This document shows positions 1 to 17,397 of a stretch of 64,000 nucleotides of DNA, one piece after another; within the stretch, counting starts at the first letter, position 1, and every line of letters begins with the position of its first letter. This stretch comes from an uncultured Porphyromonadaceae bacterium. Its GTDB lineage: Bacteria; Bacteroidota; Bacteroidia; Bacteroidales; Muribaculaceae. Below the pieces are notes generated by a model. It saw only the letters and a program-made list of their open reading frames with translations. It made no database searches and was not told the DNA's origin. The position numbers and the translations under genes were made by a program. The stretch lies in NCBI GenBank assembly GCA_947174995.1, contig CAMWLC010000003.1, forward strand, positions 22,455 through 86,454, given 5' to 3'.

Positions 1-3000
1 TGGGGTTCACGTCCACCTGTATGCCCTCGATCTCGATAGGTGTTTCGTTTATGACGTTAAACATGGCATACTCCTTCATGTCCCCCTTGTATTCAAGCAC
101 AATGTCAAGGTCGGAGTCCGGGCGTGCGTCGCCTCGGTTCCGGCTGCCGTGTATCTCCACGCCGACGATCTCAGCGTCGATGTCCGCGTCGCTGAATATC
201 TGTTCCACCTCGCGACTGACAATATCCTTCACCTCCTTATGGGTGTAGCCTTCAAGTCCGGAGATTGGCTTCTCTTTGGTCGCCTCAGCCTTCTTAGGCT
301 CTTCTACGGTGGTGGGGTGGCTGTCAATGTAAGCGGCCACTTCGCCTAGATAACTGAATGTCTTGTCGTCATACTCAAAGACCGGTCCGGTGTAGTCTCC
401 CTTCCTGTTGGGAGCGTCCACCTGTGTCACGCTGTGCTTGCCGTCGATGATGATCTCGCGCTTATAGGTCGGGGTCTTGCTGTCTCCTTCCTCCCAGTCG
501 TTTTCAGTGACCTCCACACGAGCCATAAGGGCTTCCTCATCCGGTGTCACGTCTTTTTCAGGCTCTGCCGGTGCTTCTGGTTCTACTGCGGCTGGTTCAG
601 GCTCTCCACCGCGTTCAACAGGAGGTTGAGCTTCATCGCCTGTTTCGCTTCGTCCGGCTTGCTCTGCTGCTGCCTCTTCCGCATCTCGCTTTCTTTGCTC
701 AATGGCAGCGTCCACGAGTGCTTGCTGTTCTTTTGGGGTTGCATTTCTGAAATGGTTATTTACTAATGTTAATACTTCATTCTTCGACATCGGAGGCATC
801 ATCTCTCCATCCTTCGATATGTAATATTGCCCTGACGCGGCTTTCTGAGCGTTGAAGTTGTAGACTGCAAGCACCTTCCGCACGTCGCTCGGCTTCGCGC
901 TGTTAAGTATGTCTGCGAGTAGGAGGGTAGCTGCGTCGGTTACCCTGGTATCTTCGAATAGTCCCTGCATCCTGCCGAAGGGAGACACTGGCATCCCCTC
1001 CTTGTATATTTTAGGCTGTGTAGTCTTGGCGCGATACACGAGGTCTACGGCATTGGCGAGTTCTTTGCTGAGGTCATAGCCTTTCTTTGCAAGTGTACGG
1101 TTGCTTGCGATTTCACTCAGCCCCATCACGATTGACTCTCGGAGGGTTGGCATGGAGATTATCTGACGCACTGCCTCTGGTGCGGAATCGAATGTCTTAC
1201 CTATTAGTGTGTTCTCGATAAGTTCTTTTCCTGCGGCCGATAGTGACGTGCCTGTCCTTAGTTCCGGCATCTGCTTATCGTTGATCACGCCTGCTTGCAT
1301 CAGTGCGCCCAGAGCGTTTGCAGCAGCAGCCTCGTCGCGGTAATAGTCTGTAAGCCGGTCATACTTCGCTATGCCTCCGACAATCTCTGCAAATACTTCG
1401 TCGGGGACGGTCTTACCAAGTTTCACTGCCGCCTCCTGCTTGCTCTGTGATTTCATCTCCTGAGCGTTGAAGCGTGAGAAGGTGTTGGCGTCGTATGGCA
1501 AATCCTCGTCAGGCACGAAAACGACACGAGGGTGTTTCATTCCTGCCGCCTGTTCAGGCGTGAATCCATATTTACGGCCATACTTGCTGAGGTATTCCAG
1601 ATATGCGCCGTCCGTGCCTTGTGTGGCTGCAATGTCTCCGCTCATGGTGCGGTTGTTGCCGGAAAGTACGATGCCGTCCTTGCTGACGATTACAGGGGTC
1701 TGCATTGCCCGGCTGTCGTATGCGTCGGCCATGCTCTGCACCATGCGCTGTGCGTCATGGTCTCGTTTGTAGTCGCGGTCGTTCACGCTCTGGCCGTGTT
1801 TGTCGATCGGGAAACCCTCGGTCGGCTCGAAGGCATTGTTAACGTCATGGCTCGCTGAGGCGGCTCCTGCCTCGGTCATGACGTAGTGGCCGGTCAGCGT
1901 GCTGCCGTCCGGAAGGGTGATTACGTCAGGGTGGCCGTCTACCTTCGGGGATGCGTCCCATTTCTCTTTTATCTTCGGATTGACTGCATGGGTGCCTATG
2001 CGCTCCTGCTCGGCCTGTTTCTCTGCCTTGATGCGCTGCTCTTCCTCAAAGCGTGCGACGGCCTCGTCATGGAGCTGTGCGTTTCGTGCTGCCGTCTCTG
2101 CCGCTCTTGCTGCGGCTTCCTCGGCCTTGCGACGCTTCTGTGCCTCTTCTATGGCTTGCCACTTGGCAAGTGTGTTCTTTGCGGCCTCCACTTTGGCTCG
2201 TGCTTTTTTGAGATCTTCACGGTATTTACCCATGCCTCCTGTCGGCTTCACTTTGCCGACGGCCTTTTCTGCGGTCGTGATGGCGGTCTTGGCATTGCCT
2301 ATCTCGGCCTGAACATAGGCAAGTGCGTCCTCCGGTGTGCCGAAGAACTCCGTCGCGGCCTCCCATGCCGTATCTGCATCGACGCTCTCATGTGTCAGGA
2401 TAGGGTCGCCGGTCTGCTCGTCCACCGGGATTCTCTCCAGAGCCGACGGTGCTTTCTCTTCCTCCGGGGCATTGTCAGGACCCGTCAGATGTCCAACCGA
2501 AGGGGAGGAAATATTCTCACCGGCATTGATGCCCTCTTCCGGAATATTCTCAGGAGCGGCCTGTGATCCTTCCGTTGCCCTGCGCTGCTGTTCATATTCG
2601 TATGCCTCCAACCGTCCGCGCCATTCGTCGCTGAGGAAGTCGCGGCTTCGGAGATCGTCGATGGCACTGTTGAGGATATTGTCGTCAAGCGTAGTCGCAA
2701 TCTGTGTCCCTTCCTCATAACCTCGGTCATATTCCTGCACGTTGGGAACGCTTTCAGGTGTTTCCTCTGCCGTATCAGTGGCTAATCCATCGTTTTCTCC
2801 GGAATTGAGAACGATTCCGTCACTTTCGGGAACACCCTCGGTTGCTGCGCTGATGAGTGCTTCCTGCTCCCGGTCTATGGCCTCGTATGCGGTTTGCAGT
2901 TCCGTCTGGGGGTCGATGGTCTCACCGACGGTCAATATCTGGTCCGGTGATGTAAACTTATACTCGCCGGATTCGTCGAGTATGATTACAGAGTCGGAAG

Positions 3001-6000
3001 AGCTGCGCACGTCCACGCCGCTGCCGTCCGGAAACATGGCAACGTCCCCCTTGATGATGTAGACCGGCCTGTCGTCGGCCTTCATCGTGGCCGGGACGAT
3101 AACGCCCCGCTCCTTATGTGTCCGGTGGGCAACCTCACCCTGCACCTTCTGACGCTTGTCTGCTGCGGCCTCGTTCGATGCGTCAAGCACTCCGTCAAGA
3201 GAGGCTTTGGCGTTGATGTAGTAAAGCACTGCGTCCTTCTGGTCCGGTGTAAGCTCCGGATCGTTGAGTGTTCCCCACGGATTTTCTTTGATTTGCCACA
3301 TGTACGCCTCGGCCTCGTCGCCGAAAGCGTCCTCGCAAAGCTGGTGTGCCTCGGTCATGCGAAGCGATATAGCGTCGATCTCGGCCTGCGCCTCCGGGTC
3401 TCCCTGCTCAAAGCGGCCATAAAGAAGGCGGCTGTCCTCATAGATGCGGTCGGCCTCTGCCTCTTCAGGTGTAGGCTCGTATGTCTCAGGCTCCGGAAAC
3501 AGCTCGCGGACGTAGCGGTTTACTGCGTCCTTCTCGGCCTCTGTGCGCTTGCCCGGCTCCTTGCGTATGGCTTTATCTATGTCAACGCCTGTTTCCTGAG
3601 ATATGCGCTCCCTGATTCCTACCGGGCTTACCTCCGCTCCTGCATCTGTGTTGCGCTCTATCGCCTCATCTATCATGTCGGCCATAATCCGCTGGTCCTC
3701 GGTTACGTCCTTATCACCGCGCCTTACGGCCTCATAGATGTTATAGACGGTCTGGGCGTCAGCTCCGGGCGATACTTCATTGATTGCGGCCGCCATGACG
3801 CGCTGCTGTGCCTCTGCATTTCGGCATTGCTCGCCTATGTCGATGGTATTGAGTTCTGATTGGCGGTTGATGCGCTCAATCTCTCTGTCTGCCGCTTCCT
3901 TGTTTGAGAATTTACGGGAGGTTACGATTCCTCCCTGTTGGTTGATGGAAGAGACGTATATGGTTCCGTCCTCGCCCTTATCCATTGACCAGCCGGCGAC
4001 GGTTGACATGGGGAGCATACGGCCAGTCAGGATATAATATGCTTTGGCTCTTGTAGCCTCGCTCACACTCTCGTTCTCCATTAGACGCTCCATTGCTGAA
4101 TAACCGTCGAATGTAGGGTTTCCGGTCTCGTCAAGTGTCGGCTCGTAGTCCGCAGCCCTTGAAAAGCCGGTGATGCCTGTGTAGTCTCCTTCTAACTTCT
4201 GCGCTGCTGCGGTCTTTCTTGACTTGTGTTCGGGGTCGTAAGTGAAGAGATTAGAGAGGTCACCGTAGCCTTTTCTCTTCAATTCCTCGCGCTCTTCCTT
4301 ACTCATGGCAATGTCGGAAGGCGACTGGTCCAGACGCTCACGGAGAAGTTCTACAAAGCTCTTGTTGTTGTGTATGCGCTCTTCACGCGACAATGGACGG
4401 TCGCCTGTCGGCTGTATGGGGCGAAGGCTGCGTATCATGGCCGGGGCGGTCTTGATTGCATGAGACGCGCCGAAACCCATCATCATCGCCATACTCTCGC
4501 TCCATGCGTCTCCCGACATGTCGTTTCTGGCTTCGTTTCTGGCTTCGGTTTTTTTCTTCTCATCCTCAATCGTGTCATAACCGTACTTCTTGGCATATAG
4601 CTTATCAAATTGCTCATCGGGCATAGTCTGAATTGCGTATACGTCGGGAGCTGCAAAAATAGTACCCTCAAACAGCTTTGAAACTGCCGTCTCTCCTGCG
4701 CGTAATGCTATCTTTCCGCCTGTGGAAGTTGCTGCCTTTACCCATTTGTCCGCTACATTGCCGATAAGGGGAGAGACAACGCCTGTGGCCGCTCCCATGC
4801 CTATGCCATGCACACCGCTGTTAAGGACTGAGCCGAAAGAGAAACCTTCCATTTCTCTTGTCTCCGGATTCAGGTAGCCTCCCTGATACAACTGGCGTTC
4901 CGCGTCCTTCACGGCCTCGAATGTGCCGAAGTTGGCACCTCCGGCGGCCATGCCTCCTATGATGCGTCCTGCAAGGGTTGTGGCGGCATATCGTCCGGCC
5001 ACGTCTCCCAGTGCCTTTTTCGCCATCATCTTACCTGCGGCTCTTGTGGCGTTCTTGAAGGCGATGTTTCCTGCCCAGCCTCCCAGATAGGTGGTAGGAT
5101 CTATCGCCATACCTGCTATCATACCTGCAATATCGAGGCCTCTATGCTCCGCGCCGTACCTCTCCATTGCGTCAAGCTCTGCGTATGCCTGACCGTATGG
5201 GTTAATCGTGCCTGACAAAGCGACGGATGCCGGGTTAAGCTCCAGCATCTTACGGACGAAAAATTCATTCTTGCTCTGCGGTCCGTTGCGCTTGACGTAT
5301 TCCTCATGCACCTGTCCGTACACAACGGATTTAGCTGCGTCCTTCGCGGCCTGTTCAATGGTTTTGCCGTTTGTGTCCTCCGGGTGTTTGGTGAAATAGT
5401 CTGTATATGAGGCTATGAGGTCGCGCCTGTATGCCGGGGGAAGGGAATTGTAGGCGTTCTCGGCGATAAGGTTGAGGTCACCGATTCCTGCCTGTTTCCG
5501 TGCGGCGGCATGGCCGAGTGCGGCATTGACACCTCCAACCATGTTGAGGGGGTTGCTCATGTAGGCTTCCTGCTCCTTGTCGCTCAGCTCGTCGTCTGCC
5601 TGTACTGCGGCGGCTACTGCCTTGCGTATCGGTGCCTCATAATCGAGCTGCGCCTGACGCTGCACATCCTCCTGCTTCGACGGATCGAGGCCGTTTTCTT
5701 TCATTCGGCTCACAAACTGATTCATGAGCCGGACACGACGTGCGCCGTATTCGGCTTTATCTGCCTCCATTAAGTCAGTGGTAAGACTGCCGTCGGGCAG
5801 GAGCCACTGGGTTTTACGCTGTCCGTCCACCTCAACGACACCATAAGGCACTGGACCCTGACCGGAAAGAAGAGGTTTCGCCTGTTCGCCGGTCTCTCCC
5901 TGACTATTGCCGGAAGGAGAGGCCGACACATCAGGGGTCAATCCCATTACCTGTGTGGGTGTACCGGCGAGTTGTGCCTGAAACTTGGCCGCTTTGAGTT

Positions 6001-6478
6001 TCCTTCGGCCTTCAGGTGTGTTGCGCTCTGCCATGCGTCGGGTCTGCTCAATCCTCGACCTCGATCTCGCGTTAAAATCGGACAACATGGAGTTGAGGTT
6101 ATATGCCATCCTGATTTTCTCCTGTTCCGTCGGTTGCCATGTCGGCTCTGGAGACGGTGTAGGAATGGAGACAGGAGGCTGTGCCGTCTGCTGAGGTGCT
6201 ACGGTCTCTGTGGTCGGTTCCTGTGGCTGTGGTGCTGACTGAGGCTGCACAGGCTTTTCCTGCTTAGGTTGTGGGGCAGGAGCGACAGGAGCATACAGGG
6301 CGTTGAAATCGTCCTTGCTACCTACGTCCAATCCCATGCCGACGGCCTTGTCATAATACCAATCCCTGTCAGCTTGGTTAGCGAGTGAAGAGGTAAACTC
6401 CTGTTGGCTGCCAATGTCGTAGCCTTTAGCCCTTAGTTTGTCGTACAGCCATTTAATATCTTCGGTGTTGTTAGCCAT
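1..6478 (-). CDS. Giant polyvalent phage protein with DdrB-like ParB domain and nucleotidyltransferase domain (3' end outside window)
   Basis: One open frame of 2159 codons that is still open at position 1. Seen in order: two N-terminal W-x-Y-x-K...G-x-D-[IV]-G-S-x3-F repeats (residues about 8-62); a Pro/Gln-rich linker (about 65-120); a Gly/Ala-rich hydrophobic stretch (about 450-570) that could enter a membrane; long charged regions; a coiled coil (about 1400-1500); a DdrB-like ParB region with SHD near 1543-1545 and SGNNRT near 1606-1611; an acidic Pro/Glu linker (about 1930-1980); and a nucleotidyltransferase-fold core with GS at 2111-2112 and DLD at 2123-2125. Family knowledge: polyvalent proteins join many enzymatic domains and are thought to enter the new host with phage or plasmid DNA. 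Inference: it is packaged in the virion and acts on host or phage nucleic acid soon after entry. The start is 2 nt after the stop of the upstream gene, which suggests translational coupling. The C-terminus and any further domains are unseen. Confidence 0.8.
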   Translation of the reverse strand, partial: MANNTEDIKWLYDKLRAKGYDIGSQQEFTSSLANQADRDWYYDKAVGMGLDVGSKDDFNALYAPVAPAPQPKQEKPVQPQSAPQPQEPTTETVAPQQTAQPPVSIPTPSPEPTWQPTEQEKIRMAYNLNSMLSDFNARSRSRIEQTRRMAERNTPEGRRKLKAAKFQAQLAGTPTQVMGLTPDVSASPSGNSQGETGEQAKPLLSGQGPVPYGVVEVDGQRKTQWLLPDGSLTTDLMEADKAEYGARRVRLMNQFVSRMKENGLDPSKQEDVQRQAQLDYEAPIRKAVAAAVQADDELSDKEQEAYMSNPLNMVGGVNAALGHAAARKQAGIGDLNLIAENAYNSLPPAYRRDLIASYTDYFTKHPEDTNGKTIEQAAKDAAKSVVYGQVHEEYVKRNGPQSKNEFFVRKMLELNPASVALSGTINPYGQAYAELDAMERYGAEHRGLDIAGMIAGMAIDPTTYLGGWAGNIAFKNATRAAGKMMAKKALGDVAGRYAATTLAGRIIGGMAAGGANFGTFEAVKDAERQLYQGGYLNPETREMEGFSFGSVLNSGVHGIGMGAATGVVSPLIGNVADKWVKAATSTGGKIALRAGETAVSKLFEGTIFAAPDVYAIQTMPDEQFDKLYAKKYGYDTIEDEKKKTEARNEARNDMSGDAWSESMAMMMGFGASHAIKTAPAMIRSLRPIQPTGDRPLSREERIHNNKSFVELLRERLDQSPSDIAMSKEEREELKRKGYGDLSNLFTYDPEHKSRKTAAAQKLEGDYTGITGFSRAADYEPTLDETGNPTFDGYSAMERLMENESVSEATRAKAYYILTGRMLPMSTVAGWSMDKGEDGTIYVSSINQQGGIVTSRKFSNKEAADREIERINRQSELNTIDIGEQCRNAEAQQRVMAAAINEVSPGADAQTVYNIYEAVRRGDKDVTEDQRIMADMIDEAIERNTDAGAEVSPVGIRERISQETGVDIDKAIRKEPGKRTEAEKDAVNRYVRELFPEPETYEPTPEEAEADRIYEDSRLLYGRFEQGDPEAQAEIDAISLRMTEAHQLCEDAFGDEAEAYMWQIKENPWGTLNDPELTPDQKDAVLYYINAKASLDGVLDASNEAAADKRQKVQGEVAHRTHKERGVIVPATMKADDRPVYIIKGDVAMFPDGSGVDVRSSSDSVIILDESGEYKFTSPDQILTVGETIDPQTELQTAYEAIDREQEALISAATEGVPESDGIVLNSGENDGLATDTAEETPESVPNVQEYDRGYEEGTQIATTLDDNILNSAIDDLRSRDFLSDEWRGRLEAYEYEQQRRATEGSQAAPENIPEEGINAGENISSPSVGHLTGPDNAPEEEKAPSALERIPVDEQTGDPILTHESVDADTAWEAATEFFGTPEDALAYVQAEIGNAKTAITTAEKAVGKVKPTGGMGKYREDLKKARAKVEAAKNTLAKWQAIEEAQKRRKAEEAAARAAETAARNAQLHDEAVARFEEEQRIKAEKQAEQERIGTHAVNPKIKEKWDASPKVDGHPDVITLPDGSTLTGHYVMTEAGAASASHDVNNAFEPTEGFPIDKHGQSVNDRDYKRDHDAQRMVQSMADAYDSRAMQTPVIVSKDGIVLSGNNRTMSGDIAATQGTDGAYLEYLSKYGRKYGFTPEQAAGMKHPRVVFVPDEDLPYDANTFSRFNAQEMKSQSKQEAAVKLGKTVPDEVFAEIVGGIAKYDRLTDYYRDEAAAANALGALMQAGVINDKQMPELRTGTSLSAAGKELIENTLIGKTFDSAPEAVRQIISMPTLRESIVMGLSEIASNRTLAKKGYDLSKELANAVDLVYRAKTTQPKIYKEGMPVSPFGRMQGLFEDTRVTDAATLLLADILNSAKPSDVRKVLAVYNFNAQKAASGQYYISKDGEMMPPMSKNEVLTLVNNHFRNATPKEQQALVDAAIEQRKRDAEEAAAEQAGRSETGDEAQPPVERGGEPEPAAVEPEAPAEPEKDVTPDEEALMARVEVTENDWEEGDSKTPTYKREIIIDGKHSVTQVDAPNRKGDYTGPVFEYDDKTFSYLGEVAAYIDSHPTTVEEPKKAEATKEKPISGLEGYTHKEVKDIVSREVEQIFSDADIDAEIVGVEIHGSRNRGDARPDSDLDIVLEYKGDMKEYAMFNVINETPIEIEGIQVDVNP

Positions 6479-6480
6479 GA

Positions 6481-7461
6481 TTATTTTCTTCTGCTGGGTG
6501 GTACATTATCATCGTTGCCTCGTCTGCTTGGTGGGGTATTGTCTTTTGGCTTAGGTCTTGCCGGTTGCCCTCCCTTCTTGGTCGTTGTGGCCGTCTGGGA
6601 AGAGTGTCCGTTGGTTTCATCGTCGCGGTCGGTTGTTGTCGATGATGTTATATCCTCTTCTTGCCATGTGCCGTGCTGCTTGGCAAAGCGGTCAGCGGCC
6701 TCCTTAGTCCGGAAGGAATGAGGGTTGCCGTTTTCGTCCCATGCCGTATATTCCTTAGCCTCGCTTCGATCATGCGCTCGTGCTGAGGCCATTGAGTTTG
6801 CTGCGGATGCACGGTAAGAACCTGCCCTTGCCGATTCCGTGGCATTCTTTAATTGTAGCTCCTGCGGCTTATTCTCAGCCTCGTATTGTGCCGCTATTGC
6901 ATCCTGTTCCGCTTTATCGGCCTTTCCTTTCTGTTCTCGCTGTTTGTCGGGTTGTAAGAGTGCTTGCCAACTGTGTGCCTCTGCATCACGCTCGGCCTTC
7001 TCCCTTGCAAGCTTCTGCGCCTCATGCTGCGCCCTCATGTCGCGGATCGTCTTGGCCTTTGCGTTCTGTGCGTCACCCAGACGTAGCATATAATTGTTGT
7101 AGCGGTCAGCGTCGGCCTGTCTCTCGGCCTTTAGAGCCTCGATGCGCTCGTTGACCTTCCCCAGATGGGAGGATTGGGGATTGTAGGCATTGGGGGCGTA
7201 TTGGGTCGTAAAGAAGAGATTGGAGAGGGCTGACAGGCCATCGACGGTTGCGGCGATTACCTTCTTGGACTTCTCCATTCTCTCACGCTTTTTCTTCTGC
7301 TCCGGGGTCTCCTGATTCACGGCGGCGGCTGCCGCTTTGAGGGCGGCAATCTGCTCGTCGTAGCCCATTACGGCCTCCTGTTCCGACATGGGGGAGGTGG
7401 TGGGCTCCTGAGACGTTGCAGGTGCTTCCGGGGTCTGCTCGTTGATCTCGTCGTTTGTCAT
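6481..7461 (-). CDS. Phage coiled-coil protein, probable internal virion/ejection protein
   Basis: 326 residues with a low-complexity acidic N-terminus (about 1-35), then a long Ala/Glu/Lys/Gln-rich region with strong coiled-coil character (about 35-240) and a disordered Ser/Thr/Lys/Pro-rich tail ending in two PPSRR motifs. A short segment around SALSNLFFTTQYAPNAY (about 78-95) is the only hydrophobic, conserved-looking patch; I recognise it from hypothetical proteins of Bacteroidota phages. There is no catalytic motif and no signal peptide. It lies between a small Gly-rich protein (18 nt upstream) and the giant polyvalent protein (2 nt downstream), an order resembling the three ejection genes of podoviruses. 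The role is inferred from context, not from a named family. Confidence 0.65.
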   Translation of the reverse strand: MTNDEINEQTPEAPATSQEPTTSPMSEQEAVMGYDEQIAALKAAAAAVNQETPEQKKKRERMEKSKKVIAATVDGLSALSNLFFTTQYAPNAYNPQSSHLGKVNERIEALKAERQADADRYNNYMLRLGDAQNAKAKTIRDMRAQHEAQKLAREKAERDAEAHSWQALLQPDKQREQKGKADKAEQDAIAAQYEAENKPQELQLKNATESARAGSYRASAANSMASARAHDRSEAKEYTAWDENGNPHSFRTKEAADRFAKQHGTWQEEDITSSTTTDRDDETNGHSSQTATTTKKGGQPARPKPKDNTPPSRRGNDDNVPPSRRK

Positions 7462-7479
7462 AAGCGTTATGGTATGGCG

Positions 7480-7977
7480 TTAGAATGCACCGGCGATATT
7501 CCCGGCGGCTGAGGCTACACCCTGTACGGCCTGAGAAATAGCCTGTGCCTTGTTTACCTCCATGTTGTTCAGTGCCTCGTTGAGTTGTGCGTCGCGCTGC
7601 TGATACTGCTGCTCGATTGAGTCCTTCCTACGCTCGGCATTGACGGCGATGTTAGAGGTTGCCTCGGCCTGTGCCTGTGCGTTGGCCGCTTTGGTGGCGG
7701 CGACACTCTCTTCTGTGCCTCCCATCACTGCGGCGGCTCCTGACGCTGCTCGGTTGCGTGACTTTATGGCCTCCTCGGTCTTGGCGAGTATGGCCTGTGC
7801 GTCGGCTCGCTGTGTAGCGTCCTCATTATATCTCTGGTCGTACCAGTCCTGATTGGTGCGCTTCTGGTCTTGCAGGTTATTCTTGACCTTCTTCATTGCC
7901 TTCGACGCGCTTATGCCGCCAAAGATACTACCGGCGATACCTGCTGCGCCTCCTATTATGCCTCCGATGAGTCCCAT
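7480..7977 (-). CDS. Small Gly/Ala-rich phage protein, gp7/gp14-like DNA-ejection (internal virion) protein candidate
   Basis: 165 residues. The N-terminus is a glycine-rich hydrophobic stretch (GLIGGIIGGAAGIAGSIFGG, residues 2-21) of the kind seen in pilot or ejection proteins that insert into membranes. The middle is a charged helix with RTNQDWYDQRYNED and long Ala/Gln/Glu-rich coiled coil; the C-terminus turns Gly/Ala-rich again (VASAAGNIAGAF). This architecture matches podovirus gp7/gp14-type ejection proteins and microvirus VP2 pilot proteins in general character; I cannot assign a specific family. It is the first gene of a three-gene minus-strand run, divergent from the terminase-like gene. 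Transcription probably starts in the 114-bp gap at 7978-8091. Confidence 0.65.
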   Translation of the reverse strand: MGLIGGIIGGAAGIAGSIFGGISASKAMKKVKNNLQDQKRTNQDWYDQRYNEDATQRADAQAILAKTEEAIKSRNRAASGAAAVMGGTEESVAATKAANAQAQAEATSNIAVNAERRKDSIEQQYQQRDAQLNEALNNMEVNKAQAISQAVQGVASAAGNIAGAF

Positions 7978-8033
7978 ATGTGCGTTGATTTTAGATATTG
8001 CAATACTTAAAATTCGCGCGCTAAATTAATGCC

Positions 8034-8041
8034 TATCTTTG
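8034..8041 (+). promoter_or_regulatory. Candidate Bacteroidota -7 box (TATCTTTG) for the terminase-like gene
   Basis: Matches the TAnnTTTG consensus and lies 50 bp upstream of the ATG at 8092 in the divergent gap. No good -33 TTTG element was seen at the usual 19-21 bp spacing, so it is only a candidate. Confidence 0.4.
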
Positions 8042-8091
8042 TATGTCAGTTTTAACCGTTGCGTCACGCGCACAAAATATATTTCAGGCTT

Positions 8092-8520
8092 ATGGCAAAA
8101 GGATATAAGACAGGTGGGCGGCAGAAAGGCACACCGAACAAAAACAACCCGACAAAAGGAGCGTTGCTCAATCATACGAGCGAATATCTTACACCGCGCC
8201 AACAGGTGGATGAGGAAGGGAAACCGAAGGTAATACAGAGAATCAAGTGGGCGAATGGTGATGACGGTCCGTATCGCACAGTAGTGGAGATTCCTGCGGT
8301 CGATGCGGACGGCAATCCGCTCGTCATGTCGGATTTTGAATTTGACATGAAGTTCCTGTCTCCGGCTGATCGCGTCGCGGCTGAACTTAAAATTATGGAG
8401 TTTCACACTCCGCGCATGAAGTCTCAGGATATAAACATGGAGATAAATATGGGTCCGCGCACAATAGAGGACACGTTGAAGGCTCTGTGTGGAGGTGAAG
8501 AAGAGGACGAGGAAGAATAA
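8092..8520 (+). CDS. Small phage terminase-like protein (TerS candidate)
   Basis: 142 residues. The basic N-terminus GYKTGGRQKGTPNKNN is the motif seen at the start of many small-terminase-like proteins of Bacteroidota phages. A later segment, LSPADRVAAELKIMEFHTPRM (about residues 90-110), resembles their conserved LxPxDRxxxxxKLMxYxxPxxQS block, and the C-terminus is acidic (EEEDEEE). The small terminase subunit recognises packaging DNA and regulates the large subunit. I chose the ATG at 8092 rather than an upstream frame extension (8059), because the conserved basic motif begins right after it. It is the only plus-strand gene of the element and lies beside a long non-coding tract of asymmetric repeats that could be its DNA target. 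No large terminase is visible. Confidence 0.55.
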   Translation: MAKGYKTGGRQKGTPNKNNPTKGALLNHTSEYLTPRQQVDEEGKPKVIQRIKWANGDDGPYRTVVEIPAVDADGNPLVMSDFEFDMKFLSPADRVAAELKIMEFHTPRMKSQDINMEINMGPRTIEDTLKALCGGEEEDEEE

Positions 8521-8973
8521 CCGGTTCGTCTATTTTATCTACTTTAGAACCCTGCAAGCTGATTTTATTGCTGTAATATCTGATGATAGGTGGGTGGCCG
8601 TCTGTGAGGATAGTCACCCAAACTTTAACCTTAATCAAACCTAACAAAAACCAAACGGAAACCAAAACGTAACCAAAAATAAACCTAACTTAAACCGACA
8701 ACAACAAAAATAATAACCAATCATCTACCAAACATAAAGCTTCGCGCACGCGCGTGTTAGATGTAGATTAGGATAAGGATTAGGATTAAAGATGTAGATA
8801 AGGATTATGATTGTAGATGTAGAATTAAGGCAACGACGTTGACGTGAAAAACACCGTGAAGGGAATTATCTTTGAATTTTAGAATCTCATAGGGGAAAAT
8901 GGGAAAAGAAAAGCCGACTTCGGGAAATTCCAAAGCCGGTTCAGGAAATTTTTGTCTGGATCTCGTAAATAAT
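8521..8973. other. Non-coding phage tract with strand-asymmetric repeat arms around a GC palindrome
   Basis: No gene is supported here. From about 8633 to 8736 the plus strand is almost only A, C and T, with repeated AACC/AAACC units. After a perfect 10-bp palindrome, CACGCGCGTG at 8747-8756, the plus strand from about 8757 to 8826 has almost no C and consists of degenerate GGATTA/GATGTAG units. A second short repeat lies near 8912-8952, where AAGCCG..TTC..GGAAATT occurs twice. Such iteron-like flanking arrays suggest an origin, a packaging site or a recombination control region; which one cannot be told from sequence. Confidence 0.6.
8747..8756. repeat. Perfect palindrome CACGCGCGTG
   Basis: A self-complementary 10-mer at the boundary between the A/C-rich arm on the left and the A/G/T-rich arm on the right. 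It is the only GC-rich patch in an otherwise AT-rich tract. Confidence 0.6.
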
Positions 8974-10125
8974 TCAGAAAATTTTGGGAATGTTGTCAAC
9001 GGCCTCCTGCTTCTTTGCATCGACAATCTTTGCATAGATTTGGGTCGTCTTCAGTTCGCGGTGGCCGAGAAGCTTGCTTACGGTGTAGATGTCGGTCCCT
9101 AACGTGAGCATTAAAACCGCAAAGGTATGCCGTCCCACATGAAAGGTTACGTTCTTGTCTATTTTGGCTCTCAGCGCCCAAATACGGAGGCTGTCGTTGG
9201 TCTCACCGGGGTAACGTATATCTCCAAACACTTTGTCAGTAGATTTGGCCTTTCCTCGCTCTCCAATCAGCTCAGCGGCCTGTGGGGTTATGTCGAGATA
9301 CTCCTGACCTCCGGTTTTCTTCTGTCGGAATATAAGCCGGGTGCGTCCGTTAAGCTCTGTTACCTCTCCCCACGTCAGTTTAACGATGTCAGACCGACGT
9401 AAACCGGTCAGGCATGAAAAGAGGAACGCTCGCTTGATCTCCGGGAAATCGCAGTCAGCCGCCGCCATGGCCTTGACCTCTTCGAGCGTGAGATAATCTC
9501 TTGTGCCTTCCTGTGACGGAAATCCCAGAATGCCTCTCATTGGATTCGTGCGAATGATTCCGTCCTCGTATGCCTGACGGAGACAGGCACGGAGTTTATT
9601 GAAGTACGACTGTCTTGAATTTTGCGACAACGGTTTTTTATTCTGGCGTTCTCTTCGGTCACAGCCGAAGGCCTCTGCCTTGTTCTCCAGATAATCCCTG
9701 AATCCTTCTACCCACTTTGGCGTGATGTCGGCAAAGGTAAGATTCTTTCGTGGGTCATACTTCATCAGGTGACGGAGACACGATGCCCAGTTGCTGAAAT
9801 TGCCCTTGCTCTCTTTCTTCTTGCGTTTTTCAGTCAGGGCATTGTAGTATTCGTAGAACAACGTCTGTTCCTTGAAATCTCCCTTGAAGCCATGCGCGCC
9901 GTTCTGAATGTCAACGATGCGCTGTGCCTTGATAGAGTTGGCGAGTGCCATTGTCTGCTTGTTACGCTCTTTATCGGCCTTCGTTTTCTCCGGAATGAGG
10001 TAGAGCTTCAGAAATTCATACTCCCTGTGTCCGTTGATGTAGATTGCCAGATAAAGGGAGATGTTTCCGTTGGCGAGTGTCTTGCGCCTGATCCTAACAG
10101 GCTCTTTGATTGATGCTGCTGCCAT
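8974..10125 (-). CDS. Tyrosine recombinase/phage integrase
   Basis: 383 residues. Domains: N-terminal arm-binding region (about 8-80, with the NGHREYEF type of strand seen in Bacteroidota integrases), SAM-like core-binding domain (about 90-195), and catalytic domain (about 210-375). Visible catalytic residues: R243 in GLRRSD, K269/K270 in QKKTGG, H329 and R332 in HVGRH, H355 in LLGHRE, and nucleophile Y364 in TQIYAKI. All expected residues are present, so it should be active. It cuts and rejoins DNA at att sites to insert and, with a partner, excise the element. It is the last gene before mnmE, which places the att core between 10126 and the mnmE end. An inverted-repeat cluster directly upstream (10142-10194) may control its expression or bind its arm domain. 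Confidence 0.93.
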   Translation of the reverse strand: MAAASIKEPVRIRRKTLANGNISLYLAIYINGHREYEFLKLYLIPEKTKADKERNKQTMALANSIKAQRIVDIQNGAHGFKGDFKEQTLFYEYYNALTEKRKKKESKGNFSNWASCLRHLMKYDPRKNLTFADITPKWVEGFRDYLENKAEAFGCDRRERQNKKPLSQNSRQSYFNKLRACLRQAYEDGIIRTNPMRGILGFPSQEGTRDYLTLEEVKAMAAADCDFPEIKRAFLFSCLTGLRRSDIVKLTWGEVTELNGRTRLIFRQKKTGGQEYLDITPQAAELIGERGKAKSTDKVFGDIRYPGETNDSLRIWALRAKIDKNVTFHVGRHTFAVLMLTLGTDIYTVSKLLGHRELKTTQIYAKIVDAKKQEAVDNIPKIF

Positions 10126-10141
10126 AATCTGTGATGTTTAG

Positions 10142-10194
10142 ATTTGGTACTTTTGGTACTTGATTTTTACGAGTACCAAAATAGTACCACAAAT
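10142..10194. repeat. GGTAC/GTACC inverted repeat cluster upstream of the integrase
   Basis: Two GGTAC copies (10146-10150, 10155-10159) face two GTACC copies (10173-10177, 10184-10188). The inner arms 10151-10160 and 10172-10181 are perfectly complementary over 10 bp with an 11-nt spacer. The cluster starts 16 nt upstream of the integrase start codon, so it may be an operator or a set of recombinase/excisionase arm sites. Confidence 0.6.
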
Positions 10195-10216
10195 ATAACA
10201 TATCCTTAGCATATAC

Positions 10217-10330
10217 ACAACATACTATTCAAGATTACGCCATATTTACCGCAGGTGGTAATCCATTGGCTAAATGTGCGTTTATGTGTCGTAGATATGC
10301 CATGAGTATGTTGTAATAAAAAATCTTGAA
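10217..10330. repeat. Two interlaced inverted repeats in the probable att region
   Basis: ACAACATACT at 10217-10226 is complementary to AGTATGTTGT at 10305-10314, and TTCAAGATT at 10228-10236 is complementary to AATCTTGAA at 10322-10330. The order is A-B-A'-B', so the two pairs cannot form one simple stem. This pattern fits paired protein-binding sites flanking a recombination core better than a terminator. Confidence 0.5.
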
Positions 10331-10338
10331 AATATGGC

Positions 10339-10356
10339 TTACTTTCCGATGCAGAA
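10339..10356 (-). other. Candidate attachment-site core at the 3' end of mnmE
   Basis: The last 18 bp of mnmE encode the conserved F-C-I-G-K end plus stop. It is established that integrative elements of the SGI1 type integrate into the last 18 bp of trmE/mnmE with a tyrosine recombinase, which restores the gene. Here an element with its integrase abuts the same position. The second copy that would prove it lies beyond the left window edge. Confidence 0.45.
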
Positions 10357-11694
10357 ATGGGAGAAGATGTTTTGGAGGAGGTCGTCGGGGGTGATGGCGC
10401 CGGTGAGGAGGCCGAGGTGGTGGATTGCCCGGCGGATGTGCTGCGAGACGAGGTCGGCGCTTTCCTGCGCTTTCAGGGCGCCGGAGGCGTCCGTCAATGC
10501 GGCGGATACCTGCCTGAGGGCGGCGTGGTGACGGGCGTTGGTGATTATGAGGGTCTGCGCCGGGTCATGGTCACGCAGGACGCTCTCCTTGAGGCGCCGC
10601 TTCAGTTGCTGCAGGGTGGCGGGGTCTTTGGATGAGAGGGCGAGCCATCCTTCCGGTGTCTCGCGGCCCGGGTGCAGGTCGGATTTGGTGAGTATCCGTA
10701 TGAGGGTCTGATCTCCGTTGATTTCGGGGATGTCTTCGGGTTGCGTGTCCGTGGCCGGGTCGCGGAGCCAGAGGATTATGCGGGCTTTGACAAGGGCCGC
10801 ACGGGCGCGGTCGATGCCTATGCTTTCGATGGGGTCGTCGGTGTTGCCGCGCAGTCCGGCGGTGTCGATGAAGCGGTAGAGGATACCGTCGATTTCGGCG
10901 GTGTCTTCTATGATGTCGCGGGTGGTGCCGGGGATGTCGCTGACTATTGCTTTGTCGTCGCCGACGAGGTAGTTCAGGAGGGTGGATTTGCCGGCGTTGG
11001 GGTGTCCGGCTATGACGACGGGGACACCCTCCTTGAGGACGCGTCCCGTAGCGTATGAGCCGGCCAGGGCGTCTATTTCGCGGATGGTGTCGTCACAGAG
11101 TCGGATGAGGGCTCCCCGGTCGGCAAACTCTACTTCTTCTTCGGAGAAATCGAGTTCGAGCTCGAGCATGGAGGCGAGGTGGATGAGGTCGTCGCGCAGG
11201 AGGGTGAAGCGGCGGGCGAAGTCGCCGCGTGTCTGTGAGATGGCGAGGGTGTGGGCGGCGCGTGATGAGGAGGCGATGAGGTCGGCTATTCCTTCGGCGC
11301 GGGTGAGGTCCATGCGTCCGTTGAGGAAGGAGCGCTGGGTAAACTCCCCGGGGAGGGCCACTCTTGCTCCGGCCTCCGTGAGGGCCTGCATTACGGCTGA
11401 GGCTATCCAGGGGGAGCCGTGGATGGTAAACTCCACGGAGTCCTGCCCGGTGAAGGAGCGGGGGGCACGATATGCGGTGGCCACGGCCTCGTCAAGGTCG
11501 CGGCCCTGTCCGTCATGTATCCAGCCGTGACAGGCGGTGTTGGGGCGCGTCTGATGAAGCGGCTTGCGTCCGCGCCACACTTTGTCGGCGATGGCGAGAG
11601 CGTCGGGGCCGGAGAGGCGTATGATGCTCAGGGCGCCTCCCGCGGGGGTGGCCGGAGCGGCTATGGTGTCGGAGAGGTCTATCGTCTGTTCCAT
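10339..11694 (-). CDS. mnmE: tRNA uridine-5-carboxymethylaminomethyl(34) synthesis GTPase MnmE
   Basis: 451 residues, normal for the family. The N-terminal domain (about 1-120) binds the tetrahydrofolate one-carbon donor; a helical domain follows and holds an inserted G domain (about 220-370). Seen motifs: G1 GHPNAGKST (near 228-237), G2/G3 region DIPGTTRD and DTAGLR, G4-like TKSD, and the invariant C-terminal FCIGK whose Cys is needed for catalysis. With MnmG it installs the cmnm5 group on U34 of tRNAs reading two-codon boxes. Its first 16 bp overlap the end of the upstream nuclease gene, so both are probably on one transcript. The phage-like element abuts the stop codon without disrupting the reading frame. 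Confidence 0.97.
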   Translation of the reverse strand: MEQTIDLSDTIAAPATPAGGALSIIRLSGPDALAIADKVWRGRKPLHQTRPNTACHGWIHDGQGRDLDEAVATAYRAPRSFTGQDSVEFTIHGSPWIASAVMQALTEAGARVALPGEFTQRSFLNGRMDLTRAEGIADLIASSSRAAHTLAISQTRGDFARRFTLLRDDLIHLASMLELELDFSEEEVEFADRGALIRLCDDTIREIDALAGSYATGRVLKEGVPVVIAGHPNAGKSTLLNYLVGDDKAIVSDIPGTTRDIIEDTAEIDGILYRFIDTAGLRGNTDDPIESIGIDRARAALVKARIILWLRDPATDTQPEDIPEINGDQTLIRILTKSDLHPGRETPEGWLALSSKDPATLQQLKRRLKESVLRDHDPAQTLIITNARHHAALRQVSAALTDASGALKAQESADLVSQHIRRAIHHLGLLTGAITPDDLLQNIFSHFCIGK

Positions 11695-12521
11695 GTCTTG
11701 AAAGAGTAATTGGCCTCGACTTCGTTTTCGATGTCGTCAGGGAGCGCGGAAAAGAAATCGAAGCCGGTGATGCGCTCCACCTCGTCCACGCTCATGGCGT
11801 AGTCGGCCATATTGCCGGGAGCCTGCATGTTGGGGTAGATGAATCCTATGGCGCGGGGAGAGTCGAGATACGGAGCGAGTATCACCTTGAAGAAGGAGGA
11901 GGGGACGCGCACCCGGGCCTCCCCGATACGCTTCCTGTCGGAGTCGGTGTATATTGGGCCGCCGATGATGATGAGCGCCGAATCGCGTCTGGCCCACAGC
12001 CGCTCCTTCTCTTCGAGCGTGGCCCATGCTCCGGCGTTGAGCGCGTGGTCCTGGGGGGTGATGTTGGCCATGGAGAAGCAGTCGCGCATGGCGTCGGAGT
12101 GCCATTTCTGGTCGGCGGCGGGGATGATGTGTCCGCGGTCGTAGCCGGAATTGGTGTAGTCCTTAGTGGTGGGACACCCCGGTAAGTCGGTATCCTGCCA
12201 GAACTTCTGCCCGTCGCGGCTGTGGTTTCCGTATGTCTCGGATGCAAGGAGTTCCCAGGCCACGTAGTTGGGCGTGCGGTTGTCGGGATTGAAGGAGAGC
12301 GAGAAGCCGTTGTAGTCTTTGGTTACGGAGGAGAGAGAGGGGGGAAGGGTGACGTTAAGCAGATCCGTGGCGTCCCCGGTGATCTGCGCCGAGGGGGATT
12401 CCCCGCGTTGCTCCGGAGTGCCGGATGAGCGGGAATGTGAGCGGGCTATGCACACGGCCGCAATGGCCGCCGCTGCGACTATCAGGATTACGAGTATCGG
12501 AGAGGTGGATTTCTTTCTCAT
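11679..12521 (-). CDS. Secreted or membrane-anchored DNA/RNA non-specific endonuclease (NUC1 type)
   Basis: 280 residues. An N-terminal hydrophobic segment (about 8-25, ILVILIVAAAAIAAVCIA) indicates a signal anchor or signal peptide, followed by a Ser/Gly-rich linker. The beta-beta-alpha metal nuclease core carries DRGH at 128-131 (catalytic His131) and the N-x-x-P...N-x-G-x-W...E pattern (NITPQ from N153, N162, E170) that binds the divalent ion. The family cuts single- and double-stranded DNA and RNA without sequence preference. Exported forms are thought to scavenge nucleotides or clear extracellular DNA. The gene overlaps the mnmE start by 16 bp, and a strong terminator hairpin at 12552-12582 separates it from the upstream operon. 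Confidence 0.92.
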   Translation of the reverse strand: MRKKSTSPILVILIVAAAAIAAVCIARSHSRSSGTPEQRGESPSAQITGDATDLLNVTLPPSLSSVTKDYNGFSLSFNPDNRTPNYVAWELLASETYGNHSRDGQKFWQDTDLPGCPTTKDYTNSGYDRGHIIPAADQKWHSDAMRDCFSMANITPQDHALNAGAWATLEEKERLWARRDSALIIIGGPIYTDSDRKRIGEARVRVPSSFFKVILAPYLDSPRAIGFIYPNMQAPGNMADYAMSVDEVERITGFDFFSALPDDIENEVEANYSFKTWNRR

Positions 12522-12551
12522 GGGCGCGGTCGGGTGATAGGGGAAAAGTTA

Positions 12552-12582
12552 ATACGGCAGGAGGGGCTGCCTCCTGCCGTAT
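12552..12582 (-). terminator. Intrinsic terminator after the lipoprotein gene
   Basis: A perfect 13-bp stem (12552-12564 with 12570-12582) with a 5-nt loop; the minus strand continues into a T-rich run. It lies 25 bp beyond the stop codon of the 12608-14659 gene. Confidence 0.75.
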
Positions 12583-12607
12583 CAACGTATCGGAAAGGGT
12601 TTATATT

Positions 12608-14659
12608 TTATTCAGCCGCATCCTTGGGAGGGAAGAGGGTGGAGTTGATGCGCTCATACTTGCCCGGGGCGAGCACGCGGTATACCACCTGCTGCTCGGC
12701 GCGGCCTCCGTCATACGTGCCGTAGTTGACGGTCAGCGTCACGTCGATGCCGTCGATCGGGCCGAAGTCGGGATAGTATTTGGCCAGTACGTAGGGGAGG
12801 GTGTGGTCATGGAAGTTGGTGATGATGAACTCCTGCACCTCCTCGTCGGTCATCCCCTCGAATCCGGCGGCATACTGTGCGCGTGCCGCTGCGGGACGGA
12901 TGTCAACGTTGGTCTGGTAGGCCGATGTGCCTGACCAGTACTCGTTGTTGCCGTAGGAAGTCACCCAATACTTTCCGCTCTTGATGTTGTCGTCGCCCAG
13001 TGGCACGCACTGCGTTTCGAACACGTAGTCCACGCAGGCCTGGTAGAACTCCACGCAGAAGGCGCTCTTGTCAGAGGGGAGGTTGAGCACGATTGAGGGA
13101 TTGTACTGCCACTGTCCGTTGGTGCGCGAGAACTGTTCCGTCACCTCGCCGGCATTACGCGTCCACTCGCCTCCGACGAAGTCGAAGAGCATGGCCTGAT
13201 AGCTGTTGGTCTTTGAAGCGGAGTCGTAGTAGTTGTAGCATACTGTCTTGCTGTCATCCTCGGCTGCGAAGGGGAACTGCATCGACAGATAGCGGGGGAG
13301 GAGGTCCTGCGGGCCGGTGCCGGAGAGGTTGGCGTAGCGCTGACCCATGGCGGTGTAGTCGGAGGGCTGGAGCATCCAGACGTCGGAGGCGGCCTGCCAT
13401 GCGGAGCCGTTGTAGCGGTAGAGGGCCACTTTCTGCGATGTCACGGGAGTGGCGGCCGGAGCGCGCCGGGTGCGCGTGGGGGAGGAAACCTCGGTAATCA
13501 CCAGATTGCAGTGGGTGGAGCCGGACTTGCCGATCACATACCCCTTGAGGTGCATCTTCTCGCCATCCTCCATTATGTCCTTGAAGAAATCGAGGGCGTA
13601 GTAGGCGGAGATGTCATACCCCTCGAGACCATCGACGTAGAGGTTGTAGTAATTACCCGAAATTGAGAGCGTAGCGTCCGCCTCGGCGTAGAAAGCGGTC
13701 TCGTCGGCTGTGCGTCCGCACACGGAAGTTATGAGCTCCGGCGTCAGCTTGACGGGAGCGGGATAAGTGTACTCGCCGGCGCCTGCCACCTCAATATTGG
13801 CCGAGGAGAGGGCGATTTGGAACGCCGTGCCGTAGCTCGAGACAGTGCCGCGCACGTTCACGTAGTCATACATCGCCACGGAGTTCTCGTCGAAATCCGA
13901 ACCGTAGACGAGAATCGAGCCCCCCTTGTCGGTGAGGATGAAGCCGCGTGTGCACATGGCCGTCACCACGCCCTGCACATTCACCTCCTGGTCGAGTGTC
14001 ACGGCGCCCAGCACATTGCTGAGCTTGAAGCCTTGGTCGCCGCCGGAAGTGGTGCCGAACACGGGATTCTGCTCCGACCAGTTGTAAGTGACAGCCGCGT
14101 AGGTGCCCGTCTCGGCCTCCGGGAAAGCCTCCTTGAGGTATCCGGGCAGGTAAGCCGCCGCGGGAGTGACGGGAGCGAAAGCGGAGATGAAATTGTCGTC
14201 GCTCTCCCAGGCGGCCTTGTAGTCGGCCTCCGTCACCTCGTAGGCGAGCGTGCCGTCATTGATGGCCTGCACGGTGGAATTGACATCGGCGGAGGCGTTG
14301 AAAGTCACCTTCACCGAAGAGCCGTCATTAAGCGCGTAGTAGGGGAAAGAGGTCGAGCCCAGGAACGCGGGGAGATACTTGCGGGCCTGGAGATTGTCGG
14401 TGAAAGACTTTGCCGTCCCTATGGCCTTGAGCGCGTCGGCCTCTCCGTCGGCCTCGGCCAGGGCCTTGTTTGTCGCGTTAGAGGCGATGGCGGAGTAATC
14501 GGTATCCGTGAGGGTGTAGACGGTAGCCTCCGAAGAACCGATGGTCGGGTCCTTGAAGCCGTTGAGGCCGTTGTTCCAGGAATCCTCGCTGCAGGCGGTC
14601 AGCATCAGACCCGCGCCCAGGGCGCAGGCGAGAAATCCGTTAGATAATATCTTGTTCAT
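12608..14659 (-). CDS. Surface lipoprotein with OB-fold-like modules, partner of the adjacent TonB-dependent receptor
   Basis: 683 residues. The signal peptide ends in a lipobox, LTAC, followed by SEDSW, so the protein is a lipoprotein; the acidic residues after the Cys fit surface export in Bacteroidota. The middle has two OB-fold-like stretches around VQGVVTAMCTRGFILTD / YVNVRGTVSSYGTAFQIA (about 225-275) and LKGYVIGKSG (about 370). Such modules occur in DUF5689/DUF6359-type lipoproteins; I cannot name the family firmly. It starts 19 nt after the receptor gene, so the two likely form an outer-membrane uptake or display complex. It does not show SusD-type TPR helices, so this is not a standard SusC/SusD pair. 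Ligand unknown. Confidence 0.75.
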   Translation of the reverse strand: MNKILSNGFLACALGAGLMLTACSEDSWNNGLNGFKDPTIGSSEATVYTLTDTDYSAIASNATNKALAEADGEADALKAIGTAKSFTDNLQARKYLPAFLGSTSFPYYALNDGSSVKVTFNASADVNSTVQAINDGTLAYEVTEADYKAAWESDDNFISAFAPVTPAAAYLPGYLKEAFPEAETGTYAAVTYNWSEQNPVFGTTSGGDQGFKLSNVLGAVTLDQEVNVQGVVTAMCTRGFILTDKGGSILVYGSDFDENSVAMYDYVNVRGTVSSYGTAFQIALSSANIEVAGAGEYTYPAPVKLTPELITSVCGRTADETAFYAEADATLSISGNYYNLYVDGLEGYDISAYYALDFFKDIMEDGEKMHLKGYVIGKSGSTHCNLVITEVSSPTRTRRAPAATPVTSQKVALYRYNGSAWQAASDVWMLQPSDYTAMGQRYANLSGTGPQDLLPRYLSMQFPFAAEDDSKTVCYNYYDSASKTNSYQAMLFDFVGGEWTRNAGEVTEQFSRTNGQWQYNPSIVLNLPSDKSAFCVEFYQACVDYVFETQCVPLGDDNIKSGKYWVTSYGNNEYWSGTSAYQTNVDIRPAAARAQYAAGFEGMTDEEVQEFIITNFHDHTLPYVLAKYYPDFGPIDGIDVTLTVNYGTYDGGRAEQQVVYRVLAPGKYERINSTLFPPKDAAE

Positions 14660-14678
14660 GTCTTGAAATCATTATAGG

Positions 14679-17384: not shown

Positions 17385-17397
17385 AAGATTGGATATG

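What the first reader, a model, noticed from the sequence alone, without database searches (positions are those of the whole stretch)
1..6478. Giant phage protein joins ejection-type context, DdrB-like ParB domain and a nucleotidyltransferase
Seen: one frame of over 2150 codons with the SHD/SGNNRT pattern of DdrB-like ParB domains and a GS-x10-SDLD nucleotidyltransferase core, after two ejection-like genes and with a Gly/Ala-rich, possibly membrane-entering stretch near 450-570. Known: polyvalent proteins of phages and plasmids combine such domains and are thought to be delivered with DNA. Inference: a virion-carried effector that nucleotidylates a host or phage target, or modifies DNA, early in infection. 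The substrate of the nucleotidyltransferase, if any, appears undescribed.
Basis: partly seen in the sequence, partly recalled or inferred. Interest (0 to 1): 0.78.

Follow-up and report, generated by a model that had tools for sequence, protein, structure and literature searches.

The report
Giant phage protein with swappable enzymes
A virus sleeping in the chromosome of a gut bacterium encodes one protein of 6,993 amino acids that joins many enzyme-like parts, is predicted to be packed in the virus particle and injected with its DNA, and includes a likely nucleotide-attaching enzyme whose target is still unknown.

Summary
The 2,159-codon frame is the first third of one unbroken 6,993-codon frame (contig C3 7951-28932) in a prophage with portal, terminase and capsid genes, beside integrase and host mnmE. 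ParB (PF18763) and nucleotidyltransferase (PF18765, PF01909) pass Pfam cut-offs in isolation. The class is known: DarB-like polyvalent proteins (Iyer 2017, PMC5512222). A homologue of 4,515 aa is in purified JC1 virions (PMC9144972; homology).

New relative to that description: Iyer et al. placed the Pol-beta NTase only in conjugative-element polyvalent proteins; here it sits in a prophage protein, directly before an InPase domain. Of 120 listed large NTase proteins, 88 also carry InPase, often within 30 residues, in either order. The NTase stretch is an exchangeable cassette: near relatives lack it at sharp junctions or hold MuF_C instead.

Inferred: virion delivery, PPi-driven nucleotidylation of a protein, perhaps a HEPN RNase. 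Weak points: the 'ejection' genes (T7 gp14 comparison fails) and the membrane stretch; InPase mostly occurs without NTase.

The parts
2..6478 (-). N-terminal 2,159 residues of the 6,993-residue polyvalent protein; it runs on to the left of the window (contig C3 7951-28932)
   Evidence: identical protein P0124
6299..6478 (-). N-terminal header (residues 1-60), shared by many giants and different in an otherwise close relative; likely capsid-targeting signal by analogy with P1 DarB
   Evidence: profile in 73 of 120 NTase-set and 101 of 120 MTase-set proteins (two proteins are in both sets); G001 relative differs; DarB precedent PMC9024508
4679..5161 (-). Gly/Ala-rich stretch (residues 440-600); hydropathy gives no transmembrane segment
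1199..1975 (-). DdrB-like ParB domain and flank (residues 1502-1760)
   Evidence: PF18763 above cut-off; local profile
2..259 (-). first 86 residues of the Pol-beta nucleotidyltransferase domain (residues 2074-2182); GSX10DXD and the third acidic site lie inside the window, the end of the domain outside
   Evidence: PF01909 and PF18765 above cut-off; motif positions; pattern kept in 129 of 129; AlphaFold model of the L080 copy pLDDT 89
6481..7461 (-). 326-aa gene of unknown family, between the 165-aa gene and the giant in the 15 loci where a match was found
7480..7977 (-). 165-aa gene, marginal T7_gp14 family match; likely minor virion protein
   Evidence: PF24072 24.1 bits, cut-off 27; relatives upstream of the giant in 16 of 33 long frames with room; T7 gp14 comparison negative
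8974..10125 (-). prophage tyrosine integrase, next to host mnmE (10339-11694)
   Evidence: PF00589, PF13102, phrog_1

Best explanation
This prophage encodes a 6,993-residue DarB-like polyvalent protein that is predicted to be packed in the virion and injected with the DNA, and whose exchangeable nucleotidyltransferase domain, set beside a pyrophosphatase domain, likely attaches a nucleotide to a host protein. Shown by sequence: one unbroken frame with, in order, a header, ParB, NTase, InPase, a PBECR3 RNase-like domain, a DNA methylase-SNF2 helicase pair, a HExxH peptidase-like region and a conserved C-terminal region, lying between integrase and portal. Inferred: the header likely steers the protein into the capsid, as the first 30 residues of P1 DarB do; the methylase-helicase likely protects the entering DNA from restriction; the peptidase-like region may cut the chain into parts. 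Inferred too: the NTase likely transfers an AMP-like group to a protein, and the adjoining InPase would remove the released pyrophosphate and so make the step one-way. A host HEPN-type RNase is my preferred target, with low confidence (about 0.15); it is a guess from kinship.
For: Single 6,993-codon frame. Domains; phrog_10089 'DarB-like antirestriction' 1,510 bits over residues 387-3113 of the C-terminal piece P0003. Phage context: P22-like portal, TerL, SU10-like capsid, integrase. Virion: JC1 gp69, 4,515 aa, found in CsCl-purified virions with 51 unique peptides (PMC9144972, passages) and homologous to the core here (28.5% over 91% of 1,541 aa, E 4e-134); an InPase-bearing Cellulophaga phi13:1 protein whose record says part of the virion by MS/MS; the InPase domain matches the end of a solved phage portal, 9b41, E 2.8e-27. 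Header: P1 DarB N-terminal 30 residues suffice for capsid targeting (PMC9024508, passages); the header profile also fits a 102-aa Cellulophaga phi19:3 protein called structural (E 3e-16), though that name rests on similarity. NTase-InPase: 88 of 120; 11 of 11 NTase proteins of the methylase-drawn set have InPase 22-23 residues on. At 80% NTase identity 18 clusters, 11 with InPase, 8 of these within 30 residues, both orders seen. Exchange. NTase kin of host MntA-like proteins: hhalign probability 97.8%. HepT in 46 of 61 sampled genomes of the genus, 44 over cut-off; control 7 of 14 named genomes.
Confidence: 0.5

Rival explanations
1. The NTase acts on nucleic acid or on free nucleotides (tailing or repairing tRNA ends, or making a signal nucleotide), and the InPase clears pyrophosphate for that or for early phage synthesis.
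For: Structure matches include Tailor, TUT7, poly(A) polymerase and CD-NTases at the same Z as MNT antitoxin. Iyer et al. propose that InPase may clear PPi for NTases and polymerases, or may act on nucleotide signals (PMC5512222 section 23). A PBECR3 RNase-like domain lies next to the pair.
Against: A minimal NTase whose closest sequence families are PF18765 and PF01909 and host MntA-like proteins; no RNA-binding Pfam match beside it.
Confidence: 0.27
2. NTase and the neighbouring PBECR3 RNase-like domain form a built-in antitoxin-toxin pair, the NTase holding the RNase silent until injection.
For: In this protein and in P0129 PBECR3 follows NTase and InPase; MntA silences the RNase HepT by AMP transfer (PMC7641770, passages).
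Against: Only 4 of 120 NTase proteins have PBECR3, and 2 of 11 in the methylase-drawn set, while PBECR3 also occurs without NTase (P0219, P0130; L038).
Confidence: 0.06
3. The protein is not carried by the virion; it is made and acts inside the cell late in infection, or serves lysogeny.
For: No proteomics for this phage; the header-capsid link and the ejection genes are inferred or weak.
Against: Portal follows in 10 of 10 long frames with room; homologue found in JC1 virions (PMC9144972); DarB and DdrB found in P1 virions (PMC9024508).
Confidence: 0.15
4. The NTase is a passenger module with no fixed partner; the next-door InPase reflects shared descent of a few module joins.
For: NTase with methylase-helicase but no InPase in a Prevotella plasmid protein and no InPase in 32 of 120; InPase usually without NTase; many proteins of the set are near copies.
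Against: Two orders in several NTase clusters, sites kept in 129 of 129, purifying selection.
Confidence: 0.2

Closest known systems
Polyvalent proteins of phages (Iyer et al. 2017, PMC5512222)
   Same: One chain with ParB, InPase, PBECR, methylase-SNF2 and a HExxH region, encoded beside virion genes
   Different: Iyer et al. list the Pol-beta NTase only for polyvalent proteins of conjugative elements (section 33; 'primarily' firmicute mobile elements in section 12); here it is in a prophage protein with two domains they list as phage-only; 6,993 residues
DarB-like antirestriction proteins (P1 DarB; JC1 gp69; Bacteroides phage BKO1-TP3 gp55)
   Same: Methylase-helicase core; BKO1-TP3 has the same order of 165-aa-type gene, middle gene, giant, portal
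   Different: BKO1-TP3 gp55 has ParB and InPase but no NTase match in the scan; JC1 gp69 is 4,515 aa
MntA antitoxin of HepT/MntA (PMC7641770)
   Same: GSX10DXD minimal nucleotidyltransferase, distant profile kin
   Different: Part of a giant chain, no HepT in the genome, under the MntA cut-off, followed by InPase
DdrB of phage P1
   Same: DdrB-like ParB domain (PF18763)
   Different: Separate, smaller protein in P1 (109 kDa)

Membership tests
Polyvalent protein, phage type | several domains of unlike activity in one polypeptide | tested here: met
Polyvalent protein, phage type | encoded beside late virion genes | tested here: met
   portal, TerL, capsid gene
Polyvalent protein, phage type | zincin-like metallopeptidase | tested here: inconclusive
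   HEAVGH at residue 5576, region matched in 112 of 120 of the methylase-drawn set; no Pfam match
Polyvalent protein, phage type | injected with the DNA | not testable with these tools
   precedents only
DarB-like antirestriction protein | methylase and SNF2 helicase in one chain | tested here: met
   phrog_10089 1,510 bits; PF00271, PF00176, PF04851 over cut-off
DarB-like antirestriction protein | protects DNA from type I restriction | not testable with these tools
   no assay
Pol-beta NTase of polyvalent proteins (PF18765) | score over the curated cut-off | tested here: met
   29.8 vs 26.9 on the isolated stretch; 23.8 in the long scan
MntA antitoxin (NF047752) | equivalog score over 60 | tested here: not met
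   21.4
MntA antitoxin (NF047752) | HepT partner gene next to it | tested here: not met
   no PF01934 match in the held genome, 92% complete
MntA antitoxin (NF047752) | GSX10DXD motif | tested here: met
DdrB-like ParB (PF18763) | score over the curated cut-off | tested here: met
   30.1 vs 27.6
T7 gp14 ejection protein (165-aa gene) | PF24072 score over cut-off and kinship with T7 gp14 | tested here: not met
   24.1 vs 27; hhalign probability 0.1%

The most novel reading that the evidence does not exclude
Phages of gut Bacteroidales inject an adenylyltransferase related to MntA, fused to its own pyrophosphatase motor, that disarms HEPN RNase toxins and other defences at the moment of entry; it rides in a plug-in slot of a giant carrier protein in which effectors (NTase, MuF_C, none) are exchanged between otherwise closely related phages, a phage counterpart of polymorphic toxins.
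Probability: 0.15. Interest if true: 0.82.

Novelty: new variant of a known kind. Interest (0 to 1): 0.5.

Why it matters
If right, one early-acting protein delivers several counter-defences at once, and its cargo slot changes quickly while the carrier stays. The NTase-InPase pair is a concrete, testable hypothesis for two domains whose roles in phages are open, and the HepT toxins common in the host genus (46 of 61 sampled genomes) give a natural first target to try. A header that differs between otherwise similar carriers may also be of use for loading proteins into phage heads, as shown for P1.

Tried and rejected
NTase with PBECR3 as a pair: an early reading of the block matches suggested it; profiles showed that the matches in G134, G058 and G140 were InPase, and PBECR3 is in only 4 of 120. 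T7 gp14 kinship of the 165-aa gene: no solved structure matched (best E 7.1, unrelated) and the direct comparison failed. Sequence search of the C-terminal region in solved structures: nothing (best E 0.23, a designed peptide). Header in solved structures: nothing. tRNA at the integrase: none in 7900-12000. A structure of the C-terminal region could not be had (below).

Literature: 'polyvalent protein' + 'nucleotidyltransferase' + 'phage' gave 7 papers. Of these I read sections 12, 23, 29, 31, 33 and passages of PMC5512222 and passages of PMC7824862; the other five I saw only in the listing. 'Not in print' means only not found in the listings, in an open-licence library.

In VIA-align no inorganic pyrophosphatase is among the 50 rows shown, which mostly span model residues 5-118; that tells nothing about the InPase part.

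Limits of the counts: no tree-aware test of NTase-InPase adjacency was made; the database lists are the best 120 of 128 and the best 120 of 1,315 scored candidates, hold near copies, and the first is bounded in length by the 3,311-aa query piece. Two of the 18 clusters (L021, L027) came from a query that contained InPase; without them 9 of 16 clusters have InPase and 7 are adjacent. L072 is cut by its contig end, so its lack of InPase tells nothing. In one search the frames L027/L071 and L021/L074 are the same contigs counted twice. The window pieces P0001-P0003 are outside the counts.
Full report
What is there. The window lies at G000:C3:22455-86454. The frame at 2-6478 (-) runs off the window; on the contig it continues without a stop to position 7951, 20,982 bases with the stop, 6,993 codons. 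The same protein, letter for letter, is in the protein database (P0124).

Setting. On the right: a 326-aa gene, a 165-aa gene, a tyrosine integrase and the host gene mnmE. On the left, off the window: P22-like portal, a terminase large subunit on the other strand, and an SU10-like capsid protein; the contig then ends. This is a prophage; no conjugation gene was matched among the neighbours scanned. The host genus is one of the Muribaculaceae: two named relatives with 95% and 93% identical NTase are Muribaculaceae, and the same contig places turn up in genomes marked as own genus.

How common. A search with the NTase found 128 large proteins, 120 listed; 88 of 120 have InPase, 31 ParB, 33 the methylase, 4 PBECR3. 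99 of 120 have InPase or ParB, domains that Iyer et al. found only in phage-type proteins (PMC5512222 section 33), whereas they found the Pol-beta NTase only in conjugative ones. A separate search with the methylase scored 1,315 candidates, all with E up to 0.001, the best 120 listed: 109 of 120 have InPase, 11 NTase, and in all 11 the InPase begins 22-23 residues after the NTase. The other way round the link is loose: of 55 viral loci found with the NTase-InPase query, 2 have an NTase match. Among 297 genomes of the family the NTase is strong in 5, each in a frame of 2,675 to 7,002 aa; the other 19 genomes have weak matches in frames of 65 to 260 aa. In annotated phage records the NTase itself was found in 4 (two unannotated faecal fragments and two records of Bacillus phage G), in plasmids in 2; one of these, a 3,234-aa protein of a Prevotella plasmid typed as non-mobilizable, has methylase-helicase and NTase but no InPase.

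Adjacency. Over 137 NTase-bearing sequences (129 database proteins and 8 loci), 64 have InPase within 30 residues (45 before the NTase, 19 after), 38 within 200, 1 further, 34 have none; at 80% NTase identity these are 18 clusters, 11 with InPase, 8 of them adjacent. Two orders in distinct clusters argue for more than one joining. This supports, but does not show, that the InPase serves the NTase. Iyer et al. already suggested in general that InPase may clear PPi for NTases (section 23).

Exchange. Against database relatives whose methylase is 93-98% identical, aligned blocks of this protein drop to little or nothing around 1500-2200, 2400-2550, 3100-3300 and 5250-5500, not all in one relative. 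P0131 lacks residues 1555-2206 at a sharp joint, P0130 lacks 1970-2206, P0125 and P0126 hold other sequence there; in P0125 it comprises a divergent ParB and MuF_C (33.0 bits, cut-off 27.6), in P0126, which keeps the ParB, no Pfam match. PBECR3 is absent from the close relatives G001 and L080. The header of G001 is different while the whole is 83% identical over the aligned part, and the InPase of L080 is only 71% identical although its NTase is 95%. I read this as a fixed carrier with cargo slots.

Delivery. Inferred from four lines: the homologous 4,515-aa protein of podovirus JC1 was found in CsCl-purified virions with 51 unique peptides (PMC9144972, passages), and its record aligns with the core here; DarB and DdrB are in P1 virions, and 30 N-terminal residues of DarB suffice for capsid targeting (PMC9024508, passages); an InPase-bearing protein of Cellulophaga phi13:1 is listed as part of the virion by MS/MS, and a solved portal matches the InPase domain at its end; portal follows the giant within 1.5 kb in 10 of 10 long frames with room, and a relative of the 165-aa gene precedes it within 2.5 kb in 16 of 33. 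Against: no data for this phage, and the T7 gp14 link is weak. The short header (profile of 55 positions) starts 73 of 120 and 101 of 120 proteins and also occurs in a 102-aa Cellulophaga protein named structural by similarity. That it is a capsid signal is an analogy.

Target. MntA transfers AMP to the RNase HepT through GSX10DXD (PMC7641770, passages). The giant's NTase has that motif and is profile kin of small host NTases (probability 97.8%), of which 6 of 10 loci looked at have an RX4HXY frame next to the NTase. HepT is in 46 of 61 sampled genomes of the genus, 44 over cut-off (control: 7 of 14 named genomes), but not in this host. This makes a HEPN toxin a fair first target and no more; protein nucleotidylation of some kind I hold at about 0.5, HEPN at 0.15.

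Verdict. Real, phage-borne, and a member of a known class that is richly present in public data. New in degree and in combination: the NTase inside a phage-type protein, its pairing with InPase, and the slot-like exchange. Interest 0.5.

Noticed in passing
G000:C20:34829-46987 (L005 6830-18988): A second, related giant frame (4,053 aa, runs off the contig) with ParB and the same two upstream genes in the same genome: probably a second prophage of the kind.
   Followed up: partly
G134:C38:49616-57562 and G058:C3:3312-11333: 2,648- and 2,673-aa NTase plus InPase proteins lie among genes that look chromosomal by eye (for G134 a GyrB/ParE-like protein and polysaccharide-type genes; names recalled, not searched); no match to this phage's structural genes in the stretches read.
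   Followed up: partly
window 8059-8520 (+): 153-aa frame kept at 67% in the G001 prophage at the same place; no PHROGs match.
   Followed up: partly
L112 5974-11909 (Cellulophaga phage phi19:3): The header occurs as a separate 102-aa gene directly before an 1,871-aa protein, where the Bacteroidales phages have one chain.
   Followed up: partly
L073 (IMG/VR contig), frame 1124-17446: Same modules with the order InPase then NTase, followed by the methylase-helicase.
   Followed up: partly
window 59399-63826 (+): 1,475-aa frame, not examined.
   Followed up: no
window 11679-12521 (-): DNA/RNA non-specific endonuclease (PF01223) next to mnmE, on the far side of mnmE from the prophage.
   Followed up: no
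G000 whole genome: No HepT (PF01934) match in this lysogen although 46 of 61 sampled genomes of its genus have one.
   Followed up: partly
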